Positions 2,255-16,896 of a stretch of 33,993 bases of DNA are shown in pieces. Source of the stretch: Streptacidiphilus melanogenes (GTDB lineage Bacteria; Actinomycetota; Actinomycetes; Streptomycetales; Streptomycetaceae); the NCBI RefSeq assembly GCF_000787835.1, contig NZ_BBPP01000018.1, positions 1 through 33,993 of the forward strand. The letters are read 5' to 3'. The notes beneath the pieces were generated by a model. That model saw only the letters and a program-made list of their open reading frames with translations, did no database searches and was not told the origin of the DNA. A program made the translations under genes and the position numbers. Within the stretch, counting starts at the first letter, position 1, and each line of letters starts with the position of its first letter.

Positions 2255-5200
2255 TCTGCGCGGCGATCCGGTCGCGCAGACCGGCGAGAATCTTCGCCGC
2301 CTGCGCCAGCCCCGCCTGCTCGCAGCGGGTGACGCCCGCGCCCAGGCGCTGCAGCGCGGCGTCGCGGCGCTCCAGCGGACCGGCCTCGACGATGGCCGCC
2401 AGCCGCAGCGACTCCGCGCGCGGTTCCTCGGCCTCGCGGCCGACCGCCGTGTAGACCGCGATCGACTGCTCGAACGCAGCCAGCGCCTCCTCCGGCCGTC
2501 GTGCCTCAGCGAGGGCGCGGCCCCGCTCGTAGTGCGCGGCCCCGGTGACGAACCAGCTCGTCACGCCGTGTCCTGCGGCGACCGCGTCCGCGCCGACGCG
2601 CTCGGAGTCCGCGATCCGGGCGAGTGCCTCGTCCAGCGCGTCCGGGCCGCCCGCCTCCATGAGCTGCCGGGCGAAGTCGCGCAGCGTCGCCGCCATCTGG
2701 TCGGCGCGCGGCGCGACCGTGTGGGAGGCGAGCGCCCGTTCCAGCGCCGCGCGGGCGGCGTCGAGACGACCCGCCTCCGCCAGCGCGCCGGTCGCCTCGC
2801 AGGCGGCCATGGTGTGGACGTCCTGGTCCTCCCAGCCCGAGACGGCGTCCGCGAGCCGGAGGAACTCTTCGGCGGCGTCGCGGTGCTCGCCCAGCGCGCC
2901 GAGACCGCGTGCGAGGTCCAGCCGCAGCTGGGCGTGGAGCCTCTCCCAGCCCTCGGCGTCGTCCGGCGTCGTGGCCTCCGCGTCCGCCAGCGCGGACTCC
3001 AGCACGGCCACCGCGTCGGCGGTGCGGCCGCTGCGGCGCAGCAGGTTGGCCAGGTTCAGCCGCGCGGGCACGGCGTTCTCGGTGTCGCCGGCGCGGTCGA
3101 AACGGGCGGCGGCCTCGGTCACCGCGCGGACCGCGCCGTTGGTGTCGCCGACCATCGCGCAGGCCTGGCCCAGCATCATGTGGGCCGGTCCGTACGGGAA
3201 CGACGCGTCCGGCCAGCGGGCGGACTCGCCCAGCGCGCGGTGGAACACCTCGACCGCCTCCTGCGGCCGCTGCTGCTGCATCCGGATCTGCCCCAGCAAC
3301 ACCAGCGCACGCGGCGCGCGCCACGGCTGCTCCACCTCCTCCAGCAGCCGCAGCGCCTCCGCCAACGCCTGCTCGGCCTCGTCGAGCCGCCCCATCCGCG
3401 CGGCGATGTCCGCCCGGTACTGCAGCGCGAGCGAGACCCGGTGCCCCATCCCGAACCCGGCGGCCGCCTGCTGGAACGCGCCGTTCTCCGCCTCGAAGAG
3501 GGCGAGAGCCTGCTCGACGCTCTGCGCGCCAGCGGCCACGGTCTCGGCGGCGGGACCGCACACGGCCCCCTCGGCGGCGGACGGAGCCGTGACGGCCGGC
3601 TCGCCCGGGGCCTCACGGCCCGAGCTCTCATGGCCCGGGGCCTCAGCGACGGCCTCTGCGCCCGGGGCGGGAGCGTCCGAAGCAGCACGGTCCGAAGCGG
3701 CATGGTCCGGGGCGGGCGCCCCGGCTGCGGCTCCTGCGGCTGCCTTGGCATCCGTGGCCTGCGTGGGCTCCGCCAGCTGTGCGGCAGCGTCGGCTGTGGC
3801 CTCCGCCCGCTCGTCTGCGGCCTGGAGGGCGCGGTAGAGGGCGTGGTGGGCCGCGTAGGTGCGGCTCTGGAGGACGGTGAGGAGGCTGTCCGGGTCGGTG
3901 GCGGGGTTCGTTGCGCGCAGGGCGGCTGCTGCGTCCCGGAGTCGGTCCAGGGACGCCCAGTCCGTGCGGCCGCCGTCGGGTTCCGCGTCGACGACCGCCA
4001 GGCGGGCCTGCGCGGCGATGCGGCGGTCCTCGCGGGCCGCTTCGGTGAAGTGCGCGACGGCGCGCTCCATCTCGGTGCGGGCGGCGGCGCGGTCGCGGCG
4101 TTCCATCGCCTCGGCGGCGCGCTGCTGCGCGACCTCCGCGCGGAGCAGCGCGAGCGGGCCGATCCCGGCGTCATCGGGGAGGACGAACTCCTCGGCGTCG
4201 ATCCGCTCGGCCACGCGCAGCCAGAACGCGTCCGCGTCGGGGTGGCCCGCGCGGTACAACTCGCGTGCCCTGCTCACCAGTTCGGCGAAGTCCTGCGGTG
4301 TCTCGGCCGCCACCGGCGCGGGACGGACGGGTGTCGCGGCGGGGGTGTGCGCCCCGGGGAGGCCCGGCGCGCGGACGCCGAGCGCCAACGGCTCGGCCAG
4401 CAGCGGCTGCTGGCCGACGCGGGCGCGGATGCGCGTGCCGACGCCGTCGGTGCCGTTGCGCGCGTCGAAGCGGCCGGCCAGCTCCTCGTTCAGCGCGCGG
4501 ACGTGCGCGAGCAGCGAGGCGACCGTCCAGTTCTCGCCAGGCGGGCCGCTGACAGGCAGCTCGCCATGGCCGTCCGCGTCCAGGCGGGTGAGCAGCAACT
4601 GCACGCCGGAACGGAAGTTGAGCAGGCCCAGCGGATTGCCCTCGGTGGCCCACAGGTCGCGGTTCTCGGCCAGGATCTCCAGGCCGCGCGCCTCGTTGCG
4701 GGTCAGCGCGCAGAACTCCACGTGCAGGCCGATCTCGGTGGTCTGGCTGGTCTTGCCGCGCGAGAAGCGGTAGCCGACCAGGTGGCTGGAGCGCGCTTCG
4801 TCGAGGCGGCCCGCGCGGACGAACGGCAGCAGCGCGTGGGCGTGGCTGGACCACGGCTCCTCGCTGCAGGTGCTCTCGCCCTCCAGGACGGGCTTCCAGA
4901 TCTCCAGCGCCCGCGCGTCCTCGCCGCGGTGGGCGTGGAAGTCGGCGCGGCTGCGCAGCTCGCAGGCGACGCAGTCGCTGTAGCGGGTGCGCGGCCGGGC
5001 GGTCCACAGCTCGAAGGCGTCCTCGACGCCCGCGTCGTCCGGGCCGCCCAGATGCCAGGCCAGGTAGAAGCGCTGCGCGTAGTACGGCTGGAGGCCCAGC
5101 TCCGCCTTCACGTAGCGGGACTTCATCTCCTCGTCCCAGCGGCGCACCGACTCGAGCGGCACCTCGGGCAGCCCGCGAAGCGCCGAGGCGACCCACTTGA

Positions 5201-5501
5201 ACCGCCAGAACAGCTGGGTGCGGGCCCACTCGTTGAACGCCTCGGGCTTGGTGTCCCACAGCTTCAGCACCTTGGCGAAGACCACCGGCGACTTCCGCTG
5301 CTCGGCGTCGTAGGTGTACGCCTCCTGGAGGTCCATCAGGGCGACGACGAGCAGCTCCGGGTCGTCCAGCCGCCCGCTCTCGTGCAGCTGCTCGGCCGCC
5401 TCCGCCAACTCCTCGGCGGTGACGGTGCGCTGCTTGCCGTAGGGGCGCTCGTCGTTGGCGCGCAGCGCCTGGGCCAGAGCCTCGGGGGTGTCCACGCTCA
5501 C
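2247..5501 (-). CDS. Large tetratricopeptide-repeat protein, coupled to Hsp90
   Basis: A 1084-residue soluble helical-repeat protein. Residues 1-320 form an irregular helical array (for example DFHAHRGEDARALEIWKPVL). Residues 400-560 form a second array. An Ala/Pro/Glu-rich, probably disordered linker spans about 562-660 (bases 3522-3818). Residues 660-1080 contain clearer TPR units such as ADIAARMGRLDEAEQALAEA and ALVLLGQIRMQQQRPQEAVE. There is no signal peptide, membrane segment or catalytic motif, so it is probably a scaffold. I chose the GTG at 5501 because it overlaps the htpG stop in a GTGA arrangement; the open frame further upstream merely shadows htpG. In eukaryotes TPR proteins are classic Hsp90 co-chaperones. 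A partnership here is inferred from translational coupling, not shown. Confidence 0.85.
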   Translation of the reverse strand: MSVDTPEALAQALRANDERPYGKQRTVTAEELAEAAEQLHESGRLDDPELLVVALMDLQEAYTYDAEQRKSPVVFAKVLKLWDTKPEAFNEWARTQLFWRFKWVASALRGLPEVPLESVRRWDEEMKSRYVKAELGLQPYYAQRFYLAWHLGGPDDAGVEDAFELWTARPRTRYSDCVACELRSRADFHAHRGEDARALEIWKPVLEGESTCSEEPWSSHAHALLPFVRAGRLDEARSSHLVGYRFSRGKTSQTTEIGLHVEFCALTRNEARGLEILAENRDLWATEGNPLGLLNFRSGVQLLLTRLDADGHGELPVSGPPGENWTVASLLAHVRALNEELAGRFDARNGTDGVGTRIRARVGQQPLLAEPLALGVRAPGLPGAHTPAATPVRPAPVAAETPQDFAELVSRARELYRAGHPDADAFWLRVAERIDAEEFVLPDDAGIGPLALLRAEVAQQRAAEAMERRDRAAARTEMERAVAHFTEAAREDRRIAAQARLAVVDAEPDGGRTDWASLDRLRDAAAALRATNPATDPDSLLTVLQSRTYAAHHALYRALQAADERAEATADAAAQLAEPTQATDAKAAAGAAAGAPAPDHAASDRAASDAPAPGAEAVAEAPGHESSGREAPGEPAVTAPSAAEGAVCGPAAETVAAGAQSVEQALALFEAENGAFQQAAAGFGMGHRVSLALQYRADIAARMGRLDEAEQALAEALRLLEEVEQPWRAPRALVLLGQIRMQQQRPQEAVEVFHRALGESARWPDASFPYGPAHMMLGQACAMVGDTNGAVRAVTEAAARFDRAGDTENAVPARLNLANLLRRSGRTADAVAVLESALADAEATTPDDAEGWERLHAQLRLDLARGLGALGEHRDAAEEFLRLADAVSGWEDQDVHTMAACEATGALAEAGRLDAARAALERALASHTVAPRADQMAATLRDFARQLMEAGGPDALDEALARIADSERVGADAVAAGHGVTSWFVTGAAHYERGRALAEARRPEEALAAFEQSIAVYTAVGREAEEPRAESLRLAAIVEAGPLERRDAALQRLGAGVTRCEQAGLAQAAKILAGLRDRIAAQTG

Positions 5502-7438
5502 GCCTCGTTCTCCGTCCCGGAACCGTTCTGTGCCTCGTGTCCCCGCTGCGGGTGTCCCTGCTGTTCGTGTCCGAGCATGGCGTGGTCGAGCAGGCTGATG
5601 AAGGACCGGTTGAGCAGCGCGCTCTCGCTGGCCCGCAGGGGGCGGCGGGTCAGCAGCACCGCCTGCCCGTACAGGGCCTCCACGGCCGTCACCGCGAGCT
5701 CCCGGTGGGTGATCGTGGCGGCGCGGCGGACCAGCGGGTTGAGGTGGTTGAGCACCAGCTGGGCGCGCGGCGTCTCGGCGCGCAGCGAGCCGAGGATGTC
5801 CGCCCACAGGCCGTCCGCCTCCTGGGCCAGCTGCGCGCGCGAACGCTCGTGGCGCGCCTCGCGGTTGTCCAGCAGCAGGGCGGGGGCGTTGGTCGGGTGG
5901 AAGCTGCGCAGCGCCACGTCGCAGTCGAAGCGCCCGACGACCTCGCGGGCGATCGCCAGGAACGCGGACGCGGCCAGCTCGGCGGCCGGGTCGACGGAGT
6001 CGAGGTGCGCGGTGACCGTGCCGGGGTCCAGGTCGGCGACGGAGCTGCCAGGCCGGATCTCCGGGAGGCGGTGCACCAGGTCGCGGTCGTAGGTGTAGCC
6101 GCCGTTGATCACGCCCAGCCCGGCGGCGCCGGCGACGGGCGCGACCTGCCGGAACTCCTCGACGGTGCGGGTCACCAGGATGACCGGGTGGGTGCGGGCG
6201 AACTCGTCGAGCGTGACGTTGCCGTCCGTGGTCTCGAACGGGAGCCACGGCAGCAGCATCTTCAGCAGCTCGTCGTCGTACCGGGCCAGCGACTTGACCG
6301 CCAGGTGGTGCACGCCGATGAACCGGTGCAGCAGCGCCGGGTCGGTCGCGGACAGCCCCGTCAGCCACTCGCGGATCCGCGCGCCGAGGGCGTCGCGGAC
6401 GGCGGCGAGCGTCTCGTCCGCGTAGAGGCCCTCGCGCGAGGCGGTCGGGCGCAGCGCGTCGGTGTCGACGACGCAACGGACGAAGAAAGCCCATTCGGGC
6501 AGGAGTTCGTCCGCCTGGTCGGAGAGCAGCATGCCCTTCAGATGCACCCGGTGCCCGGCCCGGCGCGACGGCGGGGCGGCGTCCGGCAGCACGTAGGCGA
6601 CGCCGCGCAGGCCGACGACCGGCAGCTCCAGCTCGATGGTGTCGAGCGGGGCGAAGTCGAAGGTGCTGCGGCAGAACTCCGTGTACGCCTCGCGGCGCGC
6701 CAGCGGGGAGGCGTGCTGCGCCGCCCACGGCGGGGTCTCGTTGACCCGCAGCGCGCCGCCGTGCGCGTCCTGCACGGTGACGTCGTAGCGCAGCAGGCTG
6801 CCGAAGTCCCGGGCGAGCCGGACCACCTGGTCGTGCCGGGTCCACTCGCGCGCGTCGGCGCGCGGGGCGAGGGTGACCGTCGTGCCCGGCTCCGGCTTGG
6901 CGCCGGAGGGCAGGGTGCGGATGGTGTAGCGGCCGTCGGAGTGGCCGCGCCACTCGATGACGGGTGCGTCCTTCGTCCTTGCCGAGCGGGTCACGACGGT
7001 GATCTCGTCCGCGACCACGAAGCAGGCCAGCAGGCCGATGCCGAACTGCCCGATGAAGTCGCCGCGGGCGGTCGCCAGGCCCGCGCCGTCGATCCCGCCG
7101 TCGGCGCCGCGCTTGGAGCTGCGCCCGATCGTCGCGAGGAAGGTGTGCACGTCCTCCTCGGTCAGGCCGACGCCGGTATCGGTGACGGTGAGCGTCTCGG
7201 CGGCGCGCACGGTGATGGCGGCCGGGGCGTCCGGGTCGAGCAGGCGGCGCGCGGAGATCGCGTCGACGGCGTTCTGCAGCAGCTCGCGCAGGTAGACGCG
7301 AGGGCTGGAGTAGAGGTGATGGGAGAGCAGGTCCACCAGGCCGCGCAGGTCGACCTGGAAGGTGTGCGCGGCGGCGTCCGGGGCGGTGTCGCCGCCGTTG
7401 CCTGAGCGGTCGTTGCTGGAGCGTTCGAAGAGAGGCAC
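5498..7438 (-). CDS. htpG: Hsp90-family molecular chaperone (HtpG, actinobacterial divergent type)
   Basis: A 646-residue Hsp90 with the GHKL ATPase fold at the N-terminus. The Bergerat motifs are visible: YLRELLQNAVDA with the catalytic glutamate E52 and Mg-binding N56, TDTGVGL with D87, and GQFGIGLLACFVVADE (130-145). The middle and C-terminal domains follow, including VVDTDALRPTASREGLY. The N-terminus has an extra ~24 residues before the core fold. The C-terminal tail is hydrophilic and low-complexity (GHEQQGHPQRGHEAQ, ending ENEA) and lacks the EEVD peptide that eukaryotic Hsp90 uses to bind TPR proteins. Translation probably starts at GTG 7438. It is the middle gene of a three-gene operon and overlaps the TPR gene by 4 bases. 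The cellular clients are unknown. Confidence 0.92.
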   Translation of the reverse strand: MPLFERSSNDRSGNGGDTAPDAAAHTFQVDLRGLVDLLSHHLYSSPRVYLRELLQNAVDAISARRLLDPDAPAAITVRAAETLTVTDTGVGLTEEDVHTFLATIGRSSKRGADGGIDGAGLATARGDFIGQFGIGLLACFVVADEITVVTRSARTKDAPVIEWRGHSDGRYTIRTLPSGAKPEPGTTVTLAPRADAREWTRHDQVVRLARDFGSLLRYDVTVQDAHGGALRVNETPPWAAQHASPLARREAYTEFCRSTFDFAPLDTIELELPVVGLRGVAYVLPDAAPPSRRAGHRVHLKGMLLSDQADELLPEWAFFVRCVVDTDALRPTASREGLYADETLAAVRDALGARIREWLTGLSATDPALLHRFIGVHHLAVKSLARYDDELLKMLLPWLPFETTDGNVTLDEFARTHPVILVTRTVEEFRQVAPVAGAAGLGVINGGYTYDRDLVHRLPEIRPGSSVADLDPGTVTAHLDSVDPAAELAASAFLAIAREVVGRFDCDVALRSFHPTNAPALLLDNREARHERSRAQLAQEADGLWADILGSLRAETPRAQLVLNHLNPLVRRAATITHRELAVTAVEALYGQAVLLTRRPLRASESALLNRSFISLLDHAMLGHEQQGHPQRGHEAQNGSGTENEA

Positions 7439-7490
7439 CGTGACGGGTTCTTTCGTGGTCGCGAAGGCGTGGGGTTCGAGGGGCCGCGGC

Positions 7491-8486
7491 TCAGGCCGCG
7501 CAGCGGGCGCGGTGGGTGCGGAAGGACAGGGCGGGATCGCCGCCGAGGTAGGCCCAGGGTGTCTGGGTGACCGTGCCGTCCAGCGCCTCGAAGAGCGGGC
7601 GGGCGAGGTGCCGCTGACCGGAGAGCGAGAACGCCATCGCGAAGGTGTTGTGTACGCCCTTCCAGGTGCGCTCGGCCCGGTACTCGGGGTGGAACACGGA
7701 CCGCTGGGCGGCCTCCTGGAGCTCGGCCATCACGTTCGGCCCGCTCATGTAGGCGCGCCCCTGCGTGCCGCCGCCCAGGTCCAGCCAGCGCTCCAGGTGC
7801 GCCCGCGCCACGAGCTCGCCCAGCGGGCTGCCGGGCGCGGCCGCGAGCATCGACTCCCGGGCGAAGGCGTGCATCTCGGCGTGCGAGCCGCCCCATTTCT
7901 CGCAGACCTGCTGCAACCGCTGCCGGTGCGAGGCCGGATGCTCCGGGGCGCGGCGCAGCGCCGCCTCGAAGCGGTAACGCGCGACGTCCTTGTCCAGCGA
8001 GGCGCCACGCGCGCTCATCTGCAGGAAGTACCAGGGTGCGAGCCACGTCGGCTCACGCTCGGCGACCTCCAGCAGTTGCTCCTCCGCGACGGAGAGCCGC
8101 TCGAGGAACACGTCCCACTGGTCCCGCGTCACGTTCCGCGCGCGGGCGCCCGTGCGGGCCTCCCACGCCCACATGACCTGCCGCGCGCCGGACAGCAGCA
8201 GCGGCAGCGGGTCGCCCGCGTCGGCGGCGATCGCCTGCGGCACCCACTCCTCGACCCCGCCGACCTCCGCCGCAGCGGTGAGCAGCGTCGTCTGCTCCAC
8301 CTGGTCCGCGGCGCCGCGCAGGCTCTGCCGCAGCGCGGGCCAGTCCCGCGCGCCCGCCTGCGCGATCACGCTGCGCAGCAGCGGATCTCCGAACGCGGGA
8401 TCCAGCGCGGGCGTGGTCTCCAGCCCTCTCCCCGCAACCCGCGCACCCCCGGCGGCATCCTTGCGCCACCGCCCGAACAACCCCAT
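7491..8486 (-). CDS. Conserved actinobacterial helical-repeat protein, first gene of the Hsp90 operon
   Basis: A 331-residue protein beginning MGLFGRWRKD. I know it only as a conserved hypothetical family in streptomycetes. The composition is helical and TPR-like throughout (for example YRFEAALRRAPEHPASHRQR). Diagnostic-looking stretches are SGARQVMWAWEARTGARARN (about residues 103-122), EPTWLAPWYFL and QVCEKWGGSHAEMHAFARES. There are no membrane segments and no enzymatic motif. A strong ribosome site (GAGGGGGACC) precedes the ATG. htpG starts 52 bases downstream on the same strand, so the two are probably cotranscribed. A truncated relative lies at 26622-27053, where SGARHTAWAWEARSGARASQ is clearly homologous. 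A role as a third chaperone-associated component is inference from position. Confidence 0.75.
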   Translation of the reverse strand: MGLFGRWRKDAAGGARVAGRGLETTPALDPAFGDPLLRSVIAQAGARDWPALRQSLRGAADQVEQTTLLTAAAEVGGVEEWVPQAIAADAGDPLPLLLSGARQVMWAWEARTGARARNVTRDQWDVFLERLSVAEEQLLEVAEREPTWLAPWYFLQMSARGASLDKDVARYRFEAALRRAPEHPASHRQRLQQVCEKWGGSHAEMHAFARESMLAAAPGSPLGELVARAHLERWLDLGGGTQGRAYMSGPNVMAELQEAAQRSVFHPEYRAERTWKGVHNTFAMAFSLSGQRHLARPLFEALDGTVTQTPWAYLGGDPALSFRTHRARCAA

Positions 8487-8594
8487 CGTGCCTGGTCCCC
8501 CTCACTCGACCGCTTTCGCGGGAGTTCCTATCATGAGGCTCCGACACGTCCGCGGCCGACCCGTTTTCCGGGCCCGGGAGGGGGACGCCCGGGT

Positions 8595-8807
8595 TCAGAC
8601 CAGGTGGTACAGGACCACGGCAGCGGCCGCGGTGATGGCTGCTCCGCCCAGGATGCCCATCGCCGCGCAGACCGGCAGTGAGTGCTTCTCCCTCGCCGCC
8701 TGCGAGATCGTCAACGCGACAGCCCACGGCACGCCGAGCATCGCCGCGAAGAGGAGTGCTCCGGTGGCCTTGGTCGGCAGGGCGAGGTCGAGCGTCGGTT
8801 GCAGCAT
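8595..8807 (-). CDS. Small two-helix membrane protein, function unknown
   Basis: A 70-residue protein with two hydrophobic segments, about residues 15-35 (TGALLFAAMLGVPWAVALTI) and 47-68 (CAAMGILGGAAITAAAAVVL), separated by a charged loop (SQAAREKHS). The ribosome site is weak (CTGGACGG). It sits alone between the Hsp90 operon and the isocitrate dehydrogenase gene. A GC-rich hairpin (CCCGGG arms at 8573-8578 and 8588-8593) just after its stop could end transcription. I do not recognise a family, so it remains a plausible but unproven gene. Confidence 0.5.
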   Translation of the reverse strand: MLQPTLDLALPTKATGALLFAAMLGVPWAVALTISQAAREKHSLPVCAAMGILGGAAITAAAAVVLYHLV

Positions 8808-8852
8808 CCGTCCAGAGTGCCCGAACGGCGGTGGACTCCGCAGCGGAACGCC

Positions 8853-12332: not shown

Positions 12333-12800
12333 GTCCTCGGTGCGCGGCCTTTGGTTCCCCAACCCCGGTCGGGGGTCGCTCTTGGGCGCGGCCGACTCCG
12401 GGCTTGCGTGCGAGCCGCGGTCCCAGTCCTCTCGGCTCCTGGCCCCCGGCCTTGCGGCCTGCCGTCCTCGGTGCGCGGCCTTTGGTTCCCCAACCCCGGG
12501 CCGGGGGTCGCTCTTGGGCGCGGCCGACTCCGGGCTTGCGTGCGAGCCGCGGTCCCAGTCCTCTCGGCTCCTGGCCCCCGGCCTTGCGGCCTGCCGTCCT
12601 GGCTCGCGGCCTTTGAATCCCCGGCTCCCGGCCGGGGGTCGCTCCTGGGCGCGGCCGACTCCGGGCTTGCGTGCGAGCCGCGGTCCCGGCCCCCTGGGCT
12701 CCTGATCCCCGGCCTTGCGGCCTGCCGCCCCGGCTTGCGGCCTGTGGAACCCCGGCTCCCGGCCGGGAGGTGCTCCTCGGCAAGGCCGACCCCGGCCTTG
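12333..12800. repeat. Tandem array of ~131-bp GC-rich units
   Basis: Units begin near 12333, 12464, 12596 and 12727; the last is partial and diverged. The first two are nearly identical, the third differs at about a tenth of positions, and the fourth decays toward 12800. Each unit contains a CCCGG-CCGGG dyad and GGCCTTGCGGCC (12448-12459, 12580-12591, 12711-12722), which on the minus strand would be a GGCC stem capped by a GCAA tetraloop. The graded decay suggests successive duplication from the left or homogenisation of the left units. Confidence 0.85.
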
Positions 12801-13551: not shown

Positions 13552-13566
13552 TACCCTGGCCCTATG
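13552..13566 (+). promoter_or_regulatory. Leaderless promoter of the toxin-antitoxin operon
   Basis: TACCCT (13552-13557) fits the TAnnnT -10 pattern and ends six bases before the ATG at 13564, so transcription would start at the A of the start codon. No ribosome site precedes the gene, which supports this reading. The -35 region is weak. Confidence 0.4.
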
Positions 13567-13959
13567 GGTGCCATGGGAACCGTGGCCGCCGGATACACGG
13601 TCGAGTTGGAGCCGGAGGTCCGAGCCTGGCTGGAGCTTCTGCCGGGTCGGCTGTTCCGGCGTGTCGAGACCTACGCCGAGCTCCTCGCCGAGCTCGGACC
13701 CGACACGCCCTCGCCGTTCGCGCGGACGCTGCGCGACGGCGTCGCCGAGCTGCGGCCGACGCTCGACGGGGTGGCGACCAGGGTCACCTACTGGATCAAC
13801 GGGGACGAGCGCCGGATCGTGCTGCTCACCGTCTTCCGCAAGACGCGCACGCACGAGCAGGCTCAGATCGAGCGCGCGGTGCGCGCCAAGCTGGAGTGCG
13901 AGGCCGCGCACGGCGCCGCGCACGGGATCTTCGTCCGTGAGGGGGTCGGGGGCACGTGA
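13564..13959 (+). CDS. HigB/RelE-like toxin (Gp49-like family)
   Basis: A 131-residue protein matching the phage Gp49/HigB-like toxin family. The family is an mRNA interferase acting at the ribosome. Typical stretches are FARTLRDGVAELRPTLDGVA, then TRVTYWINGDERRIVLLTVF, RKTRTHEQAQIERAVRAKLE. The lysine/arginine-rich central strand and the helix after KTRTHE are family landmarks. I chose the ATG at 13564; an in-frame ATG at 13573 is also possible. The stop overlaps the antitoxin start by one base (TGATG), so the pair is one transcript with the toxin first, the order seen in HigBA systems. Activity is untested, and chromosomal copies are often of unknown effect. Confidence 0.8.
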   Translation: MGAMGTVAAGYTVELEPEVRAWLELLPGRLFRRVETYAELLAELGPDTPSPFARTLRDGVAELRPTLDGVATRVTYWINGDERRIVLLTVFRKTRTHEQAQIERAVRAKLECEAAHGAAHGIFVREGVGGT

Positions 13960-14327
13960 TGGGCGGGACGAAGCAGAAGGTGACCCCGGAGCACACCCGC
14001 TGGAAGCTGCCGGCGGAGTGGCGCCGGGTGGACGGGCACCGTGAGTCGCTGGAGTTGGAGCAGGAACGCCAGGAGCACCGGCTGACCATGGCCCTGGGGA
14101 AGGTGGTGCACGACCGTCGCGTCGCCCTCGGCCTGTCGATGGCCGAACTCGCCTCGCGGATCGGCCTGTCGCGCGCGATGGTCGAACGCATCGAGGGCGC
14201 CGACGTGATCGTGACGCTCGCCCTGCTGACCCGGCTCGCCTCGGGCCTCGACGCCTCGCTGCGCTTCGCCGTCGACGCGCACGGTGCGACCGTCTCGCTG
14301 GTGGAGCAGGAGCCGACACGCGTCTGA
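13959..14327 (+). CDS. XRE-family HigA-like antitoxin
   Basis: A 122-residue helix-turn-helix protein. The HTH lies in the middle: ALGLSMAELASRIGLSRAMV followed by ERIEGADVIVTLALLTRLAS. The N-terminal 45 residues are charged and helical (DGHRESLELEQERQEHRLTM) and may contact the toxin. The pattern fits antitoxins of Gp49/HigB-type pairs, which both bind the toxin and repress the shared promoter. The start at 13959 overlaps the toxin stop. It converges with the sigma-factor gene, with only 7 bases between the two stops, so the two transcripts probably overlap. Confidence 0.8.
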   Translation: MGGTKQKVTPEHTRWKLPAEWRRVDGHRESLELEQERQEHRLTMALGKVVHDRRVALGLSMAELASRIGLSRAMVERIEGADVIVTLALLTRLASGLDASLRFAVDAHGATVSLVEQEPTRV

Positions 14328-14334
14328 CGTCCGG

Positions 14335-16452
14335 TCAGGTGCCCGTGCGCAGCACCCGCAGCGTGAAGCCCCGGCCTGCCGGGTCGATTCGGCGTGAGGC
14401 CTGCTTGAAGAGGAACTCCGCGCGCTCGTAGGAGAGTCGGCGTCGGCCGGTCTCGGGACACAGGTCCGCCGCGTCGGCAGGGGTGCGGGCCGGAGCCGGT
14501 CGGCGGGCGCTGAGGAAGAGCGGTCCGCGCGCCCGTCGCTCGGTCAACTCGGAGACGAGAAGCGTGGTTTCGGGTCGCCAGCAGACGAACGCACGTCCCG
14601 AGCGGGCGCGGTCGCGGGGGAGGTCCAGGTCCTCGACGTCCAGGGCCAGCACGGCGGTCACCGTGGCCCCGGATTCGAGCAGCACCCGCCACAGCGCGCG
14701 GTCGCGCGCGGGGATGGCAAGGTCGCGCAGCAGGGCGCGCAGCTCGGGCCCGGTGGGTGCGCTCCGGTGTGCGGTGGCCGGTGCGGTACGACGGGGGACC
14801 GCGTCCGCCAGTGCCGCATGCCCGGCCCAGGCGCAGAAGGAGCGCAGGGCGGCCCGGTGCCGGTTCCAGGTCGCCGGCGCGGCCTCGCCCCACGCCGTGT
14901 GGAACACACGAGCGATCTGATCGGCGGTCACCTGCGCCAGCGCAGCGGTGTCGCCGAGACCGGTGCGCAGGCGGCGCAGCGTCTGCGCGTACGAGCGCCG
15001 ACTGGAGGCGTCCAACCCGGCCTGGGCGAGGAAGGCGTCCGCCGCCGCGCCCAGCTCCGGGCCCGAGGTCGCGATGCCCAGCACGTCCGCGCGGCGCAGC
15101 AGGAAGGTGCGTTCGGCGTCGTTGCGGGTGAGCCCGGCCGCGCGGCGGAACTCCGTCTGCGCCTCCGCGGTGCGGCCGAGGCGTAGCAGCAGGTCGGCGC
15201 GGACGCTCGGCAGCAGGTGGTAGTCCTGGAGCGTCGGCTCCAGGTGCAGCGCGTCGACCAGGTCGAGCCCGGCCTGCGGTCCGTGCGCCCGGCCCACCGC
15301 GACGGCCCGGTTGAGCTGGACCACGGGCGTCGGCAGCAGATGCGCCAACGCCTGGTAGAGCGCCGCGATCTGCAGCCAGTCGGTCTCCTCGGCCGTCGGC
15401 GCCTGCGCGTGACAGACGGCGATCGCCGCCTGCAGCAGGTACGGGCCGGGCTGTCCGGCGCGCTCGCCGGTCGACCGACGGGCGGCGAGCAGGTCGCGGG
15501 CGCGGAGCATCGCCTCGAAGCCGCGGCGGATCAGCAGTGGGTCCCAGCGTCCCCGGTTCTGTTCGTGCAGTTGGACCGGCTCGCCGTCCGGGCCGGTCCG
15601 CGCCGCCTGCCGGGAGGCCTGCAGCTCCATCAGGGCGACCAGCGCCTGCGCCTCCGGCTCGCGCGGAGCGAGCCGGGCGAGCAGTCGGCCGAGCCGCAGC
15701 GCGGTCAGGCACAGGTCCGGCCGGATCAGGTCCTCCCCGGACGTGGCCGCGTAGCCCTCGTTGAAGACCAGGTAGACGACCTCGAGGGCGGCCCCGATCC
15801 GCTCGCCCAGCTCCTCAGGCGCGGGCGCGGCGGTGAAGTCGACGCGCTGGAGCGCCAGGAGGCGTTTGCCCTCGGCGATCCGCCGGGTCACCGTCGTCGT
15901 GTCCAGCAGCAGGTCCCGCGCGATCTCCTCGGGCGTGAGGCCGCCCAGCAGACGCAGGGTCAGGGCGATGCGCGCCTGGGTCGGCAGCGACGGATGGCAG
16001 GTGAGCAGCAACAGCCGCAGGATGTCGGCCGGTTCGTCGCCGTCGCCCTCATCGGTCCCGCCGCGCCGCCCGTCCCCGGGCTCGGTGGTCTCCAACTCCC
16101 GTGCGAGAACCGCTTGTCGGCGTTCCTCGCGCTCCGCACGGCGGATCCGGTCCACGGCACGGCGTCTGGCGACGGTGGTCAGCCAGGCGGCCGGGTTGTC
16201 CGGGATGCCGGCGGCCGGCCATTGCTCCAGCGCGGCTACCATCGCGTCCTGCGCGAGCTCCTCGGCCGCGCCCACGTCGCGTACCAGCCGGACCAGTGCG
16301 GCGGTGATCCGCGCGGACTCGAGCTTCCAGACCGCCGAGACCACCGCATGGACATCCGCCGGTCGCGCCGCTGCCGGTGGCGGCCCTGCCGTGCGCGCGC
16401 CGGGCGCCGGGACGGCCGGGTGGCCGTCCCGCGGGCCCGGTGCGGCGGTCAC
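14335..16452 (-). CDS. ECF42-type sigma factor fused to a degenerate tyrosine-recombinase domain
   Basis: A 705-residue protein. Residues 40-105 are sigma-70 region 2 (GAAEELAQDAMVAALEQWPA, AAWLTTVARRRAVDRIRRAE), and 145-205 are region 4 (LGGLTPEEIARDLLLDTTTV). Residues 215-458 are the helical extension of ECF42 sigma factors (VVYLVFNEGYAATSGEDLIR; PVVQLNRAVAVGRAHG). Where relatives normally end (TRNDAERTFLLRRADVLG), this protein continues for ~245 residues. Residues 484-545 resemble a recombinase core-binding domain (SSRRSYAQTLRRLRTGLGDT, PATWNRHRAALRSFCAWA), and 567-705 resemble a catalytic domain (ESGATVTAVLALDVEDLDLP, LCPETGRRRLSYERA). The box I arginine and box II histidine are replaced, and the tyrosine is absent through truncation. 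The GTG start overlaps the DGPF stop (GTGA). Confidence 0.82.
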   Translation of the reverse strand: MTAAPGPRDGHPAVPAPGARTAGPPPAAARPADVHAVVSAVWKLESARITAALVRLVRDVGAAEELAQDAMVAALEQWPAAGIPDNPAAWLTTVARRRAVDRIRRAEREERRQAVLARELETTEPGDGRRGGTDEGDGDEPADILRLLLLTCHPSLPTQARIALTLRLLGGLTPEEIARDLLLDTTTVTRRIAEGKRLLALQRVDFTAAPAPEELGERIGAALEVVYLVFNEGYAATSGEDLIRPDLCLTALRLGRLLARLAPREPEAQALVALMELQASRQAARTGPDGEPVQLHEQNRGRWDPLLIRRGFEAMLRARDLLAARRSTGERAGQPGPYLLQAAIAVCHAQAPTAEETDWLQIAALYQALAHLLPTPVVQLNRAVAVGRAHGPQAGLDLVDALHLEPTLQDYHLLPSVRADLLLRLGRTAEAQTEFRRAAGLTRNDAERTFLLRRADVLGIATSGPELGAAADAFLAQAGLDASSRRSYAQTLRRLRTGLGDTAALAQVTADQIARVFHTAWGEAAPATWNRHRAALRSFCAWAGHAALADAVPRRTAPATAHRSAPTGPELRALLRDLAIPARDRALWRVLLESGATVTAVLALDVEDLDLPRDRARSGRAFVCWRPETTLLVSELTERRARGPLFLSARRPAPARTPADAADLCPETGRRRLSYERAEFLFKQASRRIDPAGRGFTLRVLRTGT
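14338..15072 (-). other. Degenerate tyrosine-recombinase segment within the sigma-factor gene
   Basis: This part of the frame encodes residues ~461-705. I recall streptomycete integrase-like proteins containing TRGPLFLSERRP and LCPETGRARLGYDRA followed by DLHQLRHS. Here the equivalents are ARGPLFLSARRP, LCPETGRRRLSYERA and FTLRVLRTGT, then stop. The first catalytic arginine position reads GATVTAVLAL where GARVSEVLAL would be expected. DNA cleavage is therefore not expected, though the core-binding half might still bind DNA. Confidence 0.7.
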
Positions 16453-16778
16453 GGCCCGAAGACCTGCTGGACGATGCTCTCGCCGTCGCCCACGATCCGG
16501 CGGAAGCGCCTGGCCAGCTCGACGGCCTCCTCCTTGGAGCCGACCTCGACCAGCGCGAAGCCGGCCACGGCCTCCTTGGCCTCCGCGAACGGCCCGTCGG
16601 TCACGGTCAGCTCGTCGCCGCGGGAGACCAGCCGCACGCCCTCCGGCGCGAGGCCGCCGGTCGCCAGCAGGATCCCGGCGGCGGTCATCTCCTCGACGAA
16701 CGCGGCCATCTCGGTGAAGAGCTTCTCGTCCGGCGCGGGGGTGGTCTCGGTGCTGCGGGCGGTCATCAGGTAACGCAT
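16449..16778 (-). CDS. YCII-related DGPF-domain protein, partner of the sigma factor
   Basis: A 109-residue single-domain protein beginning MRYLMTARSTETTPAPDEKL. It carries the name-giving DGPF motif in TDGPFAEAKEAVAGFALVEV (about residues 59-78), with a ferredoxin-like YCII fold implied. DGPF proteins are the characteristic neighbours of ECF42 sigma factors in actinobacteria, studied in Streptomyces venezuelae; their biochemical role is not settled. The start at 16778 has an excellent ribosome site (AGGAGCAGGA). Its stop overlaps the sigma-factor GTG by 4 bases, so the two are translationally coupled. Confidence 0.9.
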   Translation of the reverse strand: MRYLMTARSTETTPAPDEKLFTEMAAFVEEMTAAGILLATGGLAPEGVRLVSRGDELTVTDGPFAEAKEAVAGFALVEVGSKEEAVELARRFRRIVGDGESIVQQVFGP

Positions 16779-16873
16779 GGTTCCTGCTCCTTCGTCTCCC
16801 GGCCGCCGCCCTCCGCGGCGCCCTTCTGCCCCTGCGTCGATCCCGGCCATGTGACAGGGAATGCCCCGCTGAC

Positions 16874-16896
16874 CTGAGCATATCCGTTTTGCTCAG
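16874..16896. promoter_or_regulatory. Dyad CTGAGCA-N9-TGCTCAG between divergent genes
   Basis: A perfect 7-bp inverted repeat (arms 16874-16880 and 16890-16896) in an AT-rich island between the DGPF/sigma operon and the divergent secreted-protein gene. The half-site spacing of 16 bp centre to centre suits a dimeric regulator. No regulator gene is adjacent other than the sigma factor. Confidence 0.4.

What the first reader, a model, noticed from the sequence alone, without database searches (positions are those of the whole stretch)
14335..16452. ECF42-type sigma factor fused in frame to a broken tyrosine recombinase
Seen: one uninterrupted 705-codon frame. Its first ~458 residues are a complete ECF42 sigma factor with the normal helical extension and normal upstream DGPF partner. 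The last ~245 residues have a recombinase core-binding domain and a catalytic domain that has lost the box I arginine, the box II histidine and the tyrosine region. Known: ECF42 proteins normally end after the TPR-like extension. Inference: a recombinase gene fused behind the sigma gene, lost catalysis, and may now act as a DNA-binding or regulatory module. Retention of a long open frame with good codon usage argues against a recent accident. A sigma factor carrying an integrase DNA-binding module would be a new regulatory architecture as far as I know.
Basis: partly seen in the sequence, partly recalled or inferred. Interest (0 to 1): 0.85.

Follow-up and report, generated by a model that had tools for sequence, protein, structure and literature searches.

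The report
Sigma factor wearing a dead recombinase
In several groups of actinobacteria a transcription-starting protein (a sigma factor) has captured the DNA-binding part of a DNA-cutting recombinase that no longer looks able to cut, and the recombinase's old target site now sits in the protein's own promoter, apparently as an address label.

Summary
The 705-codon frame (14335-16452, minus strand) is an ECF42 sigma factor joined to a tyrosine-recombinase core-binding domain and a truncated catalytic domain. The 25 tabulated copies form one clade, and all lack the catalytic tyrosine; in the window's genus the domain is under purifying selection.

The new part is the DNA site. A 13-bp element, TTCCCTGTCACAT, lies in the operon promoter. 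In 20 of 27 loci, the window included, it covers the -35 position, 8-9 bp from the -10-like CGACG. In 6 others it lies upstream of an ECF42-like promoter, mostly as two tandem copies. Beside the intact sister recombinase the same half-site forms a perfect 13-7-13 palindrome without a -10. A second, separately inactivated branch also keeps a recombinase-like palindrome in its promoter region.

Best explanation: the captured domain reads its ancestral recombination site and ties the sigma factor to its own promoter, largely replacing -35 reading. DNA binding is inferred, not shown.

The parts
14335..16452 (-). fusion gene: ECF42 sigma factor + inactivated tyrosine-recombinase domain, 705 codons, GTG start
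16129..16311 (-). sigma region 2
   Evidence: Pfam PF04542, residues 48-108
15856..16014 (-). sigma region 4; recognition helix reads TRRIAEGK where the six non-fused ECF42 of this genome have ..RAK
   Evidence: Pfam PF08281, residues 147-199; alignment
15499..15801 (-). ECF42 helical extension (DUF6596)
   Evidence: Pfam PF20239, residues 218-318
14338..15066 (-). recombinase-derived domain (residues 463-705), ends just after the box II position
14824..15024 (-). core-binding (SAM-like) domain
   Evidence: Pfam PF02899, residues 477-543
16449..16778 (-). DGPF/YCII partner gene, overlaps the fusion start by GTGA
   Evidence: Pfam PF03795
16849..16861 (-). recombinase half-site TTCCCTGTCACAT over the -35 position
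16835..16839 (-). -10-like CGACG, 9 bp downstream of the half-site
16870..16885 (-). GGATATGCTCAGGTCA, similar sequence in all five Streptacidiphilus fusion promoters; role unknown
   Evidence: seen by eye

Best explanation
The protein is an ECF42 sigma factor whose C-terminus is a domesticated, non-catalytic tyrosine recombinase. The captured domain binds the half-site of its recombinase ancestor (TTCCCTGTCACAT). That site lies over the -35 position of the promoter that drives the DGPF/sigma operon and, in many relatives, faces a second copy that serves a divergent gene (DUF998 where tested in four loci). Binding brings the sigma-RNA polymerase complex to this one locus; sigma region 2 still reads the -10-like CGACG, while reading of the usual ECF42 -35 by region 4 has been relaxed or replaced. 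The result would be a self-activating, almost single-locus regulon. In one branch another arrangement, perhaps the older one, is seen: an ECF42-like TGTCGA-N17-CGACG promoter with the recombinase half-sites placed upstream like an enhancer. Shown here: the fusion, its conservation, loss of catalytic residues, and the shared site and its geometry. Inferred: DNA binding, recruitment, and the role of DGPF and the signal.
For: Fusion in 5 of 14 genomes of the genus and, at a strict cutoff, 15 of 394 of the class; 25 copies form one clade (support 99/95) with an intact recombinase, L116, as sister (100/97). Purifying selection: omega 0.24-0.33 on the recombinase part against 0.18-0.27 on the sigma part, 6 pairs of 4 Streptacidiphilus sequences. 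Tyr and Lys lost in 25 of 25, box I Arg in 24 of 25; 12 of 12 intact homologues keep all six residues. Site: exact TTCCCTGTCACAT is in 14 of 15 fusion genomes and 6 of 379 others (Fisher 3e-20, not corrected for relatedness); the reversed control pattern hits 6 of 394. In 13 of the 14 every exact copy lies at the fusion promoter; G385 has a further palindrome beside its intact recombinase. In 20 of 20 class I promoters CGAC follows at 8-9 bp; on the outward arm in 11 of 12. The identical half-site as a perfect 13-7-13 palindrome lies near intact L116, and a near-identical palindrome at a gene break in L122; 0 of 5 half-sites there are followed by CGAC. Plasmid loci not used to derive the motif: 4 of 4 fusions fit (three are near-identical S. 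anulatus plasmids). N7 palindromes in the 250 bp upstream of 9 of 17 homologous recombinase genes against 24 of 421 other genes (p 4e-7). Sigma-4 helix: Arg of '..RAK' kept in 6 of 6 non-fused and 6 of 6 class II, lost in 15 of 18 class I. Separate parallel: the dead MFS-linked branch.
Against: No binding or transcription data. The motif was found after looking at the loci; only the plasmid loci are held out, and three of those four are near-copies. L032 has one reversed half-site just before the start codon and no CGACG promoter, so 1 of 27 does not fit. G331 has a one-mismatch site. In the genus search the reversed control pattern (with Y) hit once in each of 14 genomes, so a single copy per genome of such a pattern is not in itself rare (that place was not looked at). 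Only 2 of 6 non-fused paralogues in this genome match my relaxed ECF42 promoter pattern, so the 'normal' -35 rests on few cases plus recall. Three of 18 class I sigma factors, and L032, keep the Arg. In class II omega of the recombinase part is 0.48-0.60, weaker constraint. Most fusion centres are 8 bp (7 of 12), the intact site 7 bp. Eight of 17 recombinase genes showed no upstream N7 palindrome, and two of the nine hits (L134, L138) are the same site in near-copies. The full-length model is poor (pLDDT 69, pTM 0.48), so the path from domain to -35 is not modelled.
Confidence: 0.74

Rival explanations
1. The recombinase-derived domain binds the half-site but as a brake: by covering the -35 it represses its own operon until the DGPF protein or a ligand releases it, like the dead-recombinase repressor MrpR of SPbeta.
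For: The site overlaps the -35 position and is almost confined to the own promoter; MrpR is a precedent for a dead recombinase acting as repressor (PMC10516654, abstract and passages).
Against: In class II the half-sites lie upstream of an ECF42-like promoter, the nearer copy ending 28-41 bp before the -35 hexamer in the four loci that one search matched: an activator-like place. Class I promoters have no other recognisable -35, and the domain is tethered to the sigma factor itself.
Confidence: 0.13
2. The 13-bp element is only a diverged -35 read by sigma region 4; the recombinase domain is a passive or protein-binding tail.
For: Spacing of RTTCCC to CGAC is 17 bp where CGAC follows the 13-mer at 9 bp, that of TGTCGA-N17-CGAC in L002; the class I recognition helix has changed.
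Against: The same half-site, without a -10, lies beside the intact sister recombinase and at the gene break in L122; in class II it lies upstream of a separate -35; 13 conserved bp are more than a -35; the second dead branch, with no sigma factor, has the same kind of palindrome.
Confidence: 0.1
3. A decaying relic: a recombinase gene fused by accident and is being lost.
For: Catalytic residues and in 20 of 25 copies the end of the domain are gone; class II omega 0.48-0.60.
Against: Conserved over several families with many invariant residues in the recombinase part, omega 0.24-0.33 in the window's genus, and a site that stays linked to the protein.
Confidence: 0.02
4. The protein still recombines DNA, e.g. 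inverts or resolves the palindrome with a partner recombinase.
For: Palindromes of recombinase-core geometry at 12 of 20 class I promoters, centres mostly 8 bp.
Against: No Tyr or Lys in 25 of 25; the window has only one half-site, class II mostly direct repeats.
Confidence: 0.01

Closest known systems
ECF42 sigma factors (e.g. Sven_0747, Sven_4377, Sven_7131; P. putida ECF-10)
   Same: Sigma regions 2 and 4, DUF6596 extension, partner gene next door (members and TPR-rich extension from review PMC8999054, passages; the link of DGPF to ECF42 is recalled and seen at the paralogues).
   Different: Ordinary members end after the extension; here about 240 residues of recombinase follow, and the promoter -35 is replaced by, or supplemented with, a recombinase half-site.
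MrpR (YopR), master repressor of Bacillus phage SPbeta
   Same: A tyrosine-recombinase fold that lost catalysis and works as a sequence-specific regulator (PMC10516654, abstract and passages).
   Different: Free-standing phage repressor that keeps the Tyr and Lys; not joined to a sigma factor. No relative of the fusion domain was found in phage records at E 1e-8.
SroF of phage Phi3T (PDB 9rd5)
   Same: Foldseek match to the C-terminal model (E 8e-4), solved bound to DNA.
   Different: Only the entry title was seen; a phage protein; its residues and function were not checked.
Actinobacterial tyrosine recombinases on plasmids and chromosomes (L116, L119, L133; pFAJ2600 integrase)
   Same: Same family by sequence; L116 is the sister of the fusion domain; palindromes near the genes.
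   Different: Catalytic residues intact in the 12 tabulated (the plasmid ones L133-L138 were not tabulated); centre 7 bp; no -10 at the L116 site.
ECF41 / ECF56 / ECF57 and other ECFs with C-terminal extensions
   Same: Regulation by a domain fused behind region 4 (PMC8999054, passages).
   Different: The extensions named in those passages (SnoaL, cysteine-rich, TPR, WD40, anti-sigma-like) are not DNA-binding recombinase domains.

Membership tests
ECF42 sigma factor | sigma regions 2 and 4 of ECF type | tested here: met
ECF42 sigma factor | DUF6596/TPR-like C-terminal extension | tested here: met
   PF20239 E 4.7e-34; that DUF6596 marks ECF42 is recalled
ECF42 sigma factor | DGPF/YCII gene in the neighbourhood | tested here: met
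   PF03795 in the window; by BLAST or annotation in the other fusion loci
ECF42 sigma factor | protein ends after the extension | tested here: not met
   about 240 further residues: a variant, not an ordinary member
ECF42 sigma factor | target promoter TGTCGA / CGAC (consensus partly recalled; seen in L002 and class II) | tested here: inconclusive
   CGAC met in 20 of 20 class I; -35 TGTCGA replaced in class I, present in class II exactly in 3 of 6 and with 1-2 changes in 3 of 6
Active tyrosine recombinase | catalytic R-K-H-R-H-Y set | tested here: not met
   window keeps only the box II Arg; Tyr lost in 25 of 25 fusions
Active tyrosine recombinase | core-binding domain and recombinase fold | tested here: met
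Dead-recombinase regulator (MrpR-like mode of action) | recombinase fold without catalysis | tested here: met
Dead-recombinase regulator (MrpR-like mode of action) | sequence-specific DNA binding to sites in promoters | not testable with these tools
   conserved site found in promoters, binding not measured
Dead-recombinase regulator (MrpR-like mode of action) | homology to MrpR itself | not tested
   no match in 50,697 phage records at E 1e-8; MrpR not compared directly

The most novel reading that the evidence does not exclude
A captured recombinase has taken over promoter recognition from a sigma factor: core recombination sites became back-to-back promoters, and the sigma factor now finds its -35 region through a recombinase DNA-binding domain instead of region 4, with an intermediate branch (class II) that still has both. 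It may have arisen because elements of this recombinase family sat in or next to ECF42 genes, as one apparent, decayed copy in L122 does.
Probability: 0.55. Interest if true: 0.93.

Novelty: new variant of a known kind. Interest (0 to 1): 0.86.

Why it matters
Sigma factors are thought to find promoters through their own regions 2 and 4. Here a natural lineage seems to have outsourced the -35 half to a domain taken from a recombinase, with the intact sister, its site and a possible intermediate all still in living genomes. That makes the evolution of promoter specificity and the domestication of recombinases directly testable, and it suggests a modular way to build sigma factors with a single, dedicated promoter. 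The parallel MFS-linked branch suggests that this recombinase family has lost catalysis more than once while keeping a recombinase-like palindrome.

Tried and rejected
Assembly or frameshift artefact: rejected, the same architecture is in 31 loci including public plasmid records that annotate it as one coding sequence. Tyr and box III hidden in another frame: not supported; the next gene ends 7 bp past the stop, 20 of 25 fusions end near the same place, and the other five keep the region but with F or L for Tyr. Element = ordinary ECF42 promoter: rejected as full account because of L116, L122 and class II. Strict lox-like site bound by a rigid dimer: rejected for the fusions as a group, because centres vary (8, 9, 10, 16, 22) and the window has one half-site only. 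A phage origin: no match in phage records at E 1e-8. First idea that the -35 is TGTCAC with an extra TTCCC was dropped once the spacing showed RTTCCC at the -35 position. A first reading of the centre as 6 bp (14+6+14, note) was replaced by 13+8+13. L036 and L056 have runs of N in the gene and were left out of the residue table and tree; L032 was left out of the spacing count and is told as a miss. L129-L132 came later and are not in the 25. One search used a strict cutoff and scored six candidates per genome, so 15 of 394 is a lower bound; of its hits with loci I re-checked L086-L101: the only fusions among them, L086 and L092, are already counted as G133 and G180, and L095 (G485, long open frame) is a standalone 294-aa protein. 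In one search several 'control' hits are the same sites seen from the neighbouring gene; they were left in, which weakens the contrast.

Literature: nothing on a sigma factor fused to a recombinase was seen. Searches returned none; one paper (PMC10880074, a toolbox, not opened); eleven (two opened); and one each (not opened); 110 papers, of which ten were listed and none looked relevant by title. The library lacks the main ECF42 papers (Liu 2018 not held) and I did not find the ECF reclassification in it, so absence in print is weakly tested. Read: PMC8999054, PMC8103513 (passages), PMC10516654 (abstract and passages).
Full report
What is there. The minus-strand frame 14335-16452 reads 705 codons from a GTG that overlaps the DGPF/YCII stop as GTGA. 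Domains: sigma region 2, region 4, DUF6596, then a recombinase core-binding domain and a catalytic-domain remnant. The recombinase-derived part alone gives an AlphaFold model with pLDDT 88 (pTM 0.58); Foldseek's best solved matches are XerA (E 2.7e-6) and lambda integrase on DNA (E 8e-6, TM 0.59).

Distribution. The C-terminal part alone found the fusion in 5 of 14 genomes of the genus (G000, G002, G007 with a run of N, G008, G010), in G014 and twice in G031 of the same family, in Amycolatopsis arida, Nonomuraea spiralis, Streptomyces gardneri, Pseudonocardia thermophila and Actinoplanes liguriensis (the last with N), in 14 further genomes of the class besides G000 (15 of 394, a lower bound), and on four Streptomyces plasmids, where public annotation calls the 659-676 aa product simply a sigma factor. 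That is 31 loci. A DGPF/YCII gene lies next upstream in each. Of six divergent neighbours given to Pfam, four are DUF998, one (L055) RibD_C, and the window's has no match; the four plasmid records annotate DUF998.

Catalysis is lost. In an alignment of 25 fusions, 12 intact homologues and 9 MFS-linked homologues, the 12 intact ones keep R, K, H, R, H and Y. The fusions lack Y and K in 25 of 25 and the box I R in 24 of 25 (L105 keeps an R there). Seven of 25 keep the box II His. Five (L109, L110, L111, L113, L115) still have the full-length domain, with F (4) or L (1) instead of Tyr; the other 20 stop soon after box II, as the window does.

Selection and ancestry. Nei-Gojobori omega among four Streptacidiphilus sequences (6 pairs) is 0.24-0.33 for the recombinase part and 0.18-0.27 for the sigma part; for three class II sequences 0.48-0.60 and 0.21-0.28. 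The maximum-likelihood tree makes the 25 fusions one clade (99/95), sister to the intact recombinase L116 (100/97). The 9 MFS-linked proteins form another (100/100) grouped with intact L037-L039 (100/98). If lost catalysis is not regained, it was lost at least twice in this family; the root is for drawing only.

The promoter element. Upstream of the operon, 27 fusion loci were read. In 20 (class I, window included) the half-site TTCCCTGTCACAT (up to 2 changes) is followed at 9 bp (17 loci) or 8 bp (3) by CGAC. With the preceding purine, RTTCCC then sits 17 bp from CGAC in the 9-bp cases, the place of TGTCGA in the non-fused ECF42 promoter of L002. Twelve of these 20 also carry the reverse arm, and 11 of 12 of those arms are followed outward by CGAC at 8-9 bp: back-to-back promoters. 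L034, counted in class I, has in addition a direct copy 19 bp upstream. In 6 loci (class II: L108-L111, L113, L115) two direct copies 17-18 bp apart (one copy in L113) lie upstream of a separate TGTCGA-like -35 with N17 to CGACG: exact TGTCGA in L108, L110, L113, TGTCTG in L115, and one-change versions read by eye in L109 and L111. L032 fits neither: one reversed half-site just before the start codon.

Is the element tied to the fusion? Exact TTCCCTGTCACAT occurs in 20 of 394 genomes of the class: 14 of the 15 with the fusion and 6 of 379 without (Fisher 3e-20, ignoring relatedness). The reversed control pattern hits 6 of 394, so six stray hits are what chance gives. G331, the exception, has TTCCCTGCCACAT. 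In 13 of the 14 the fusion promoter holds every exact copy; G385 has a further palindrome beside its intact recombinase. Of the 6 others, G450 holds what looks like a decayed recombinase element and G443 a similar sequence end, while G076, G124, G173 and G350 showed no recombinase or ECF42 gene in the 4.5-5 kb read. In the genus, TTCCCTGTCAYAT occurs exactly once in each of four fusion genomes and in none of the other ten (the fifth fusion genome, G007, has TTCCCTGTCATAC); against this, the reversed control of that looser pattern hit once in every one of the 14, at places I did not inspect. None of six non-fused ECF42 loci of the window's genome has a half-site nearer than 5 mismatches in 200 bp. 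The plasmid fusions, read only afterwards, fit in 4 of 4, three being near-copies.

Why it is the recombinase's site. Intact L116, the sister of the fusion domain, lies 0.9 kb downstream of a perfect palindrome ATGTGACAGGGAA-TAGCCAA-TTCCCTGTCACAT, and L122 has GTGTGACAGGGAA-TGGGCTC-TTCCCTGTCACAT at the break of an ECF42 gene; none of the five half-sites there has a -10. Other homologous recombinases have palindromes of the same geometry with different letters (e.g. L119 GTGTGACAGAGAA, L133 GTGACACAGAA, L057 GTACGGGATAA). An N7 palindrome with arms of at least 11 bp and at most one mismatch lies in the 250 bp upstream of 9 of 17 such genes (12 with intact residues tabulated, 5 plasmid genes not tabulated; L134 and L138 share one site) and of 24 of 421 other genes, several of the latter being the same sites seen from the neighbour (p 4e-7). 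pFAJ2600 has one too, and L116 and L136 have theirs before the preceding gene. The MFS-linked dead branch carries CCGCAGTAAA / TTTACTGCGG copies, some with a change, in 11 of 11 intergenic regions read by eye. The paired form, up to one mismatch, occurs once per genome in 3 of 150 family genomes, at that gene only, with no control hit, and resembles the palindromes of its intact neighbours in the tree (ATCGCAGAAA, L037).

Mechanism. The simplest account is that the captured domain kept its DNA specificity and tethers the sigma factor to its own promoter. Two facts favour recruitment over blocking. Class II places the half-sites upstream of an ECF42-like promoter (nearer copy ending 28-41 bp before the -35 hexamer in the four loci matched). 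And in class I, where the half-site occupies the -35, the Arg of the region 4 recognition helix motif '..RAK' is lost in 15 of 18 (unclassified L032 keeps it), against none of 6 class II and none of 6 non-fused proteins (related sequences). Which class came first is not settled: class II without L108 is the first branch inside the fusion clade, but L108 falls in the poorly resolved rest.

What is not shown. No binding, no transcription, no signal. The role of DGPF and DUF998 is unknown. The full-length structure model is poor. The ECF42 consensus is partly recalled; only 2 of 6 paralogues matched a relaxed pattern.

Known kinds. A dead tyrosine recombinase acting as a DNA-binding regulator has precedent in MrpR (PMC10516654, abstract and passages) and perhaps SroF (title only). 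ECF42 factors with a regulatory extension are known (PMC8999054, passages). Their combination, with the recombination site inside the promoter, was not seen, in a library that lacks the main ECF42 papers.

Noticed in passing
L042-L049, L060, L062, L063 (standalone genes, 241-297 aa in the nine tabulated): A second family of catalytically dead tyrosine-recombinase-like proteins, several ending right after box II like the fusion, sits divergent from a neighbouring gene (MFS transporter by Pfam in the two tested), with CCGCAGTAAA/TTTACTGCGG palindromes between them (11+6+11 in L060 and L063): candidate one-gene transporter regulators.
   Followed up: partly
L122 (G450) 2329-8847: An ordinary ECF42 gene is split within its region 4 codons by about 4.9 kb holding TetR, MFS, DsbA-like and SDR genes; a recombinase palindrome lies at one edge; a half-site and what reads by eye as a truncated recombinase start lie at the other. 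It may show this recombinase family entering ECF42 genes.
   Followed up: partly
L109, L110, L111, L113, L115: Fusions that keep the full-length recombinase domain with Tyr changed to Phe or Leu and with half-sites mostly as direct repeats upstream of an ECF42-like promoter: a possible intermediate.
   Followed up: yes
window 16870-16885 (-): GGATATGCTCAGGTCA just upstream of the half-site is similar in all five Streptacidiphilus fusion promoters; AGGTCA also recurs in several class II promoters. Role unknown.
   Followed up: no
window 13564-14327 (+): A Gp49/HigB-like plus HTH gene pair (toxin-antitoxin-like) converges on the fusion gene and is present beside it in three of the four other Streptacidiphilus fusion loci read (L050, L051, L056), absent in L052.
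   Followed up: partly
window 12333-12800: Tandem repeat, 131-bp unit, 3.6 copies, 90% matches, between genes; long overlapping frames there are probably spurious.
   Followed up: no
L116 4605-5867 (+): A group II intron reverse transcriptase/maturase lies just downstream of the intact sister recombinase.
   Followed up: no
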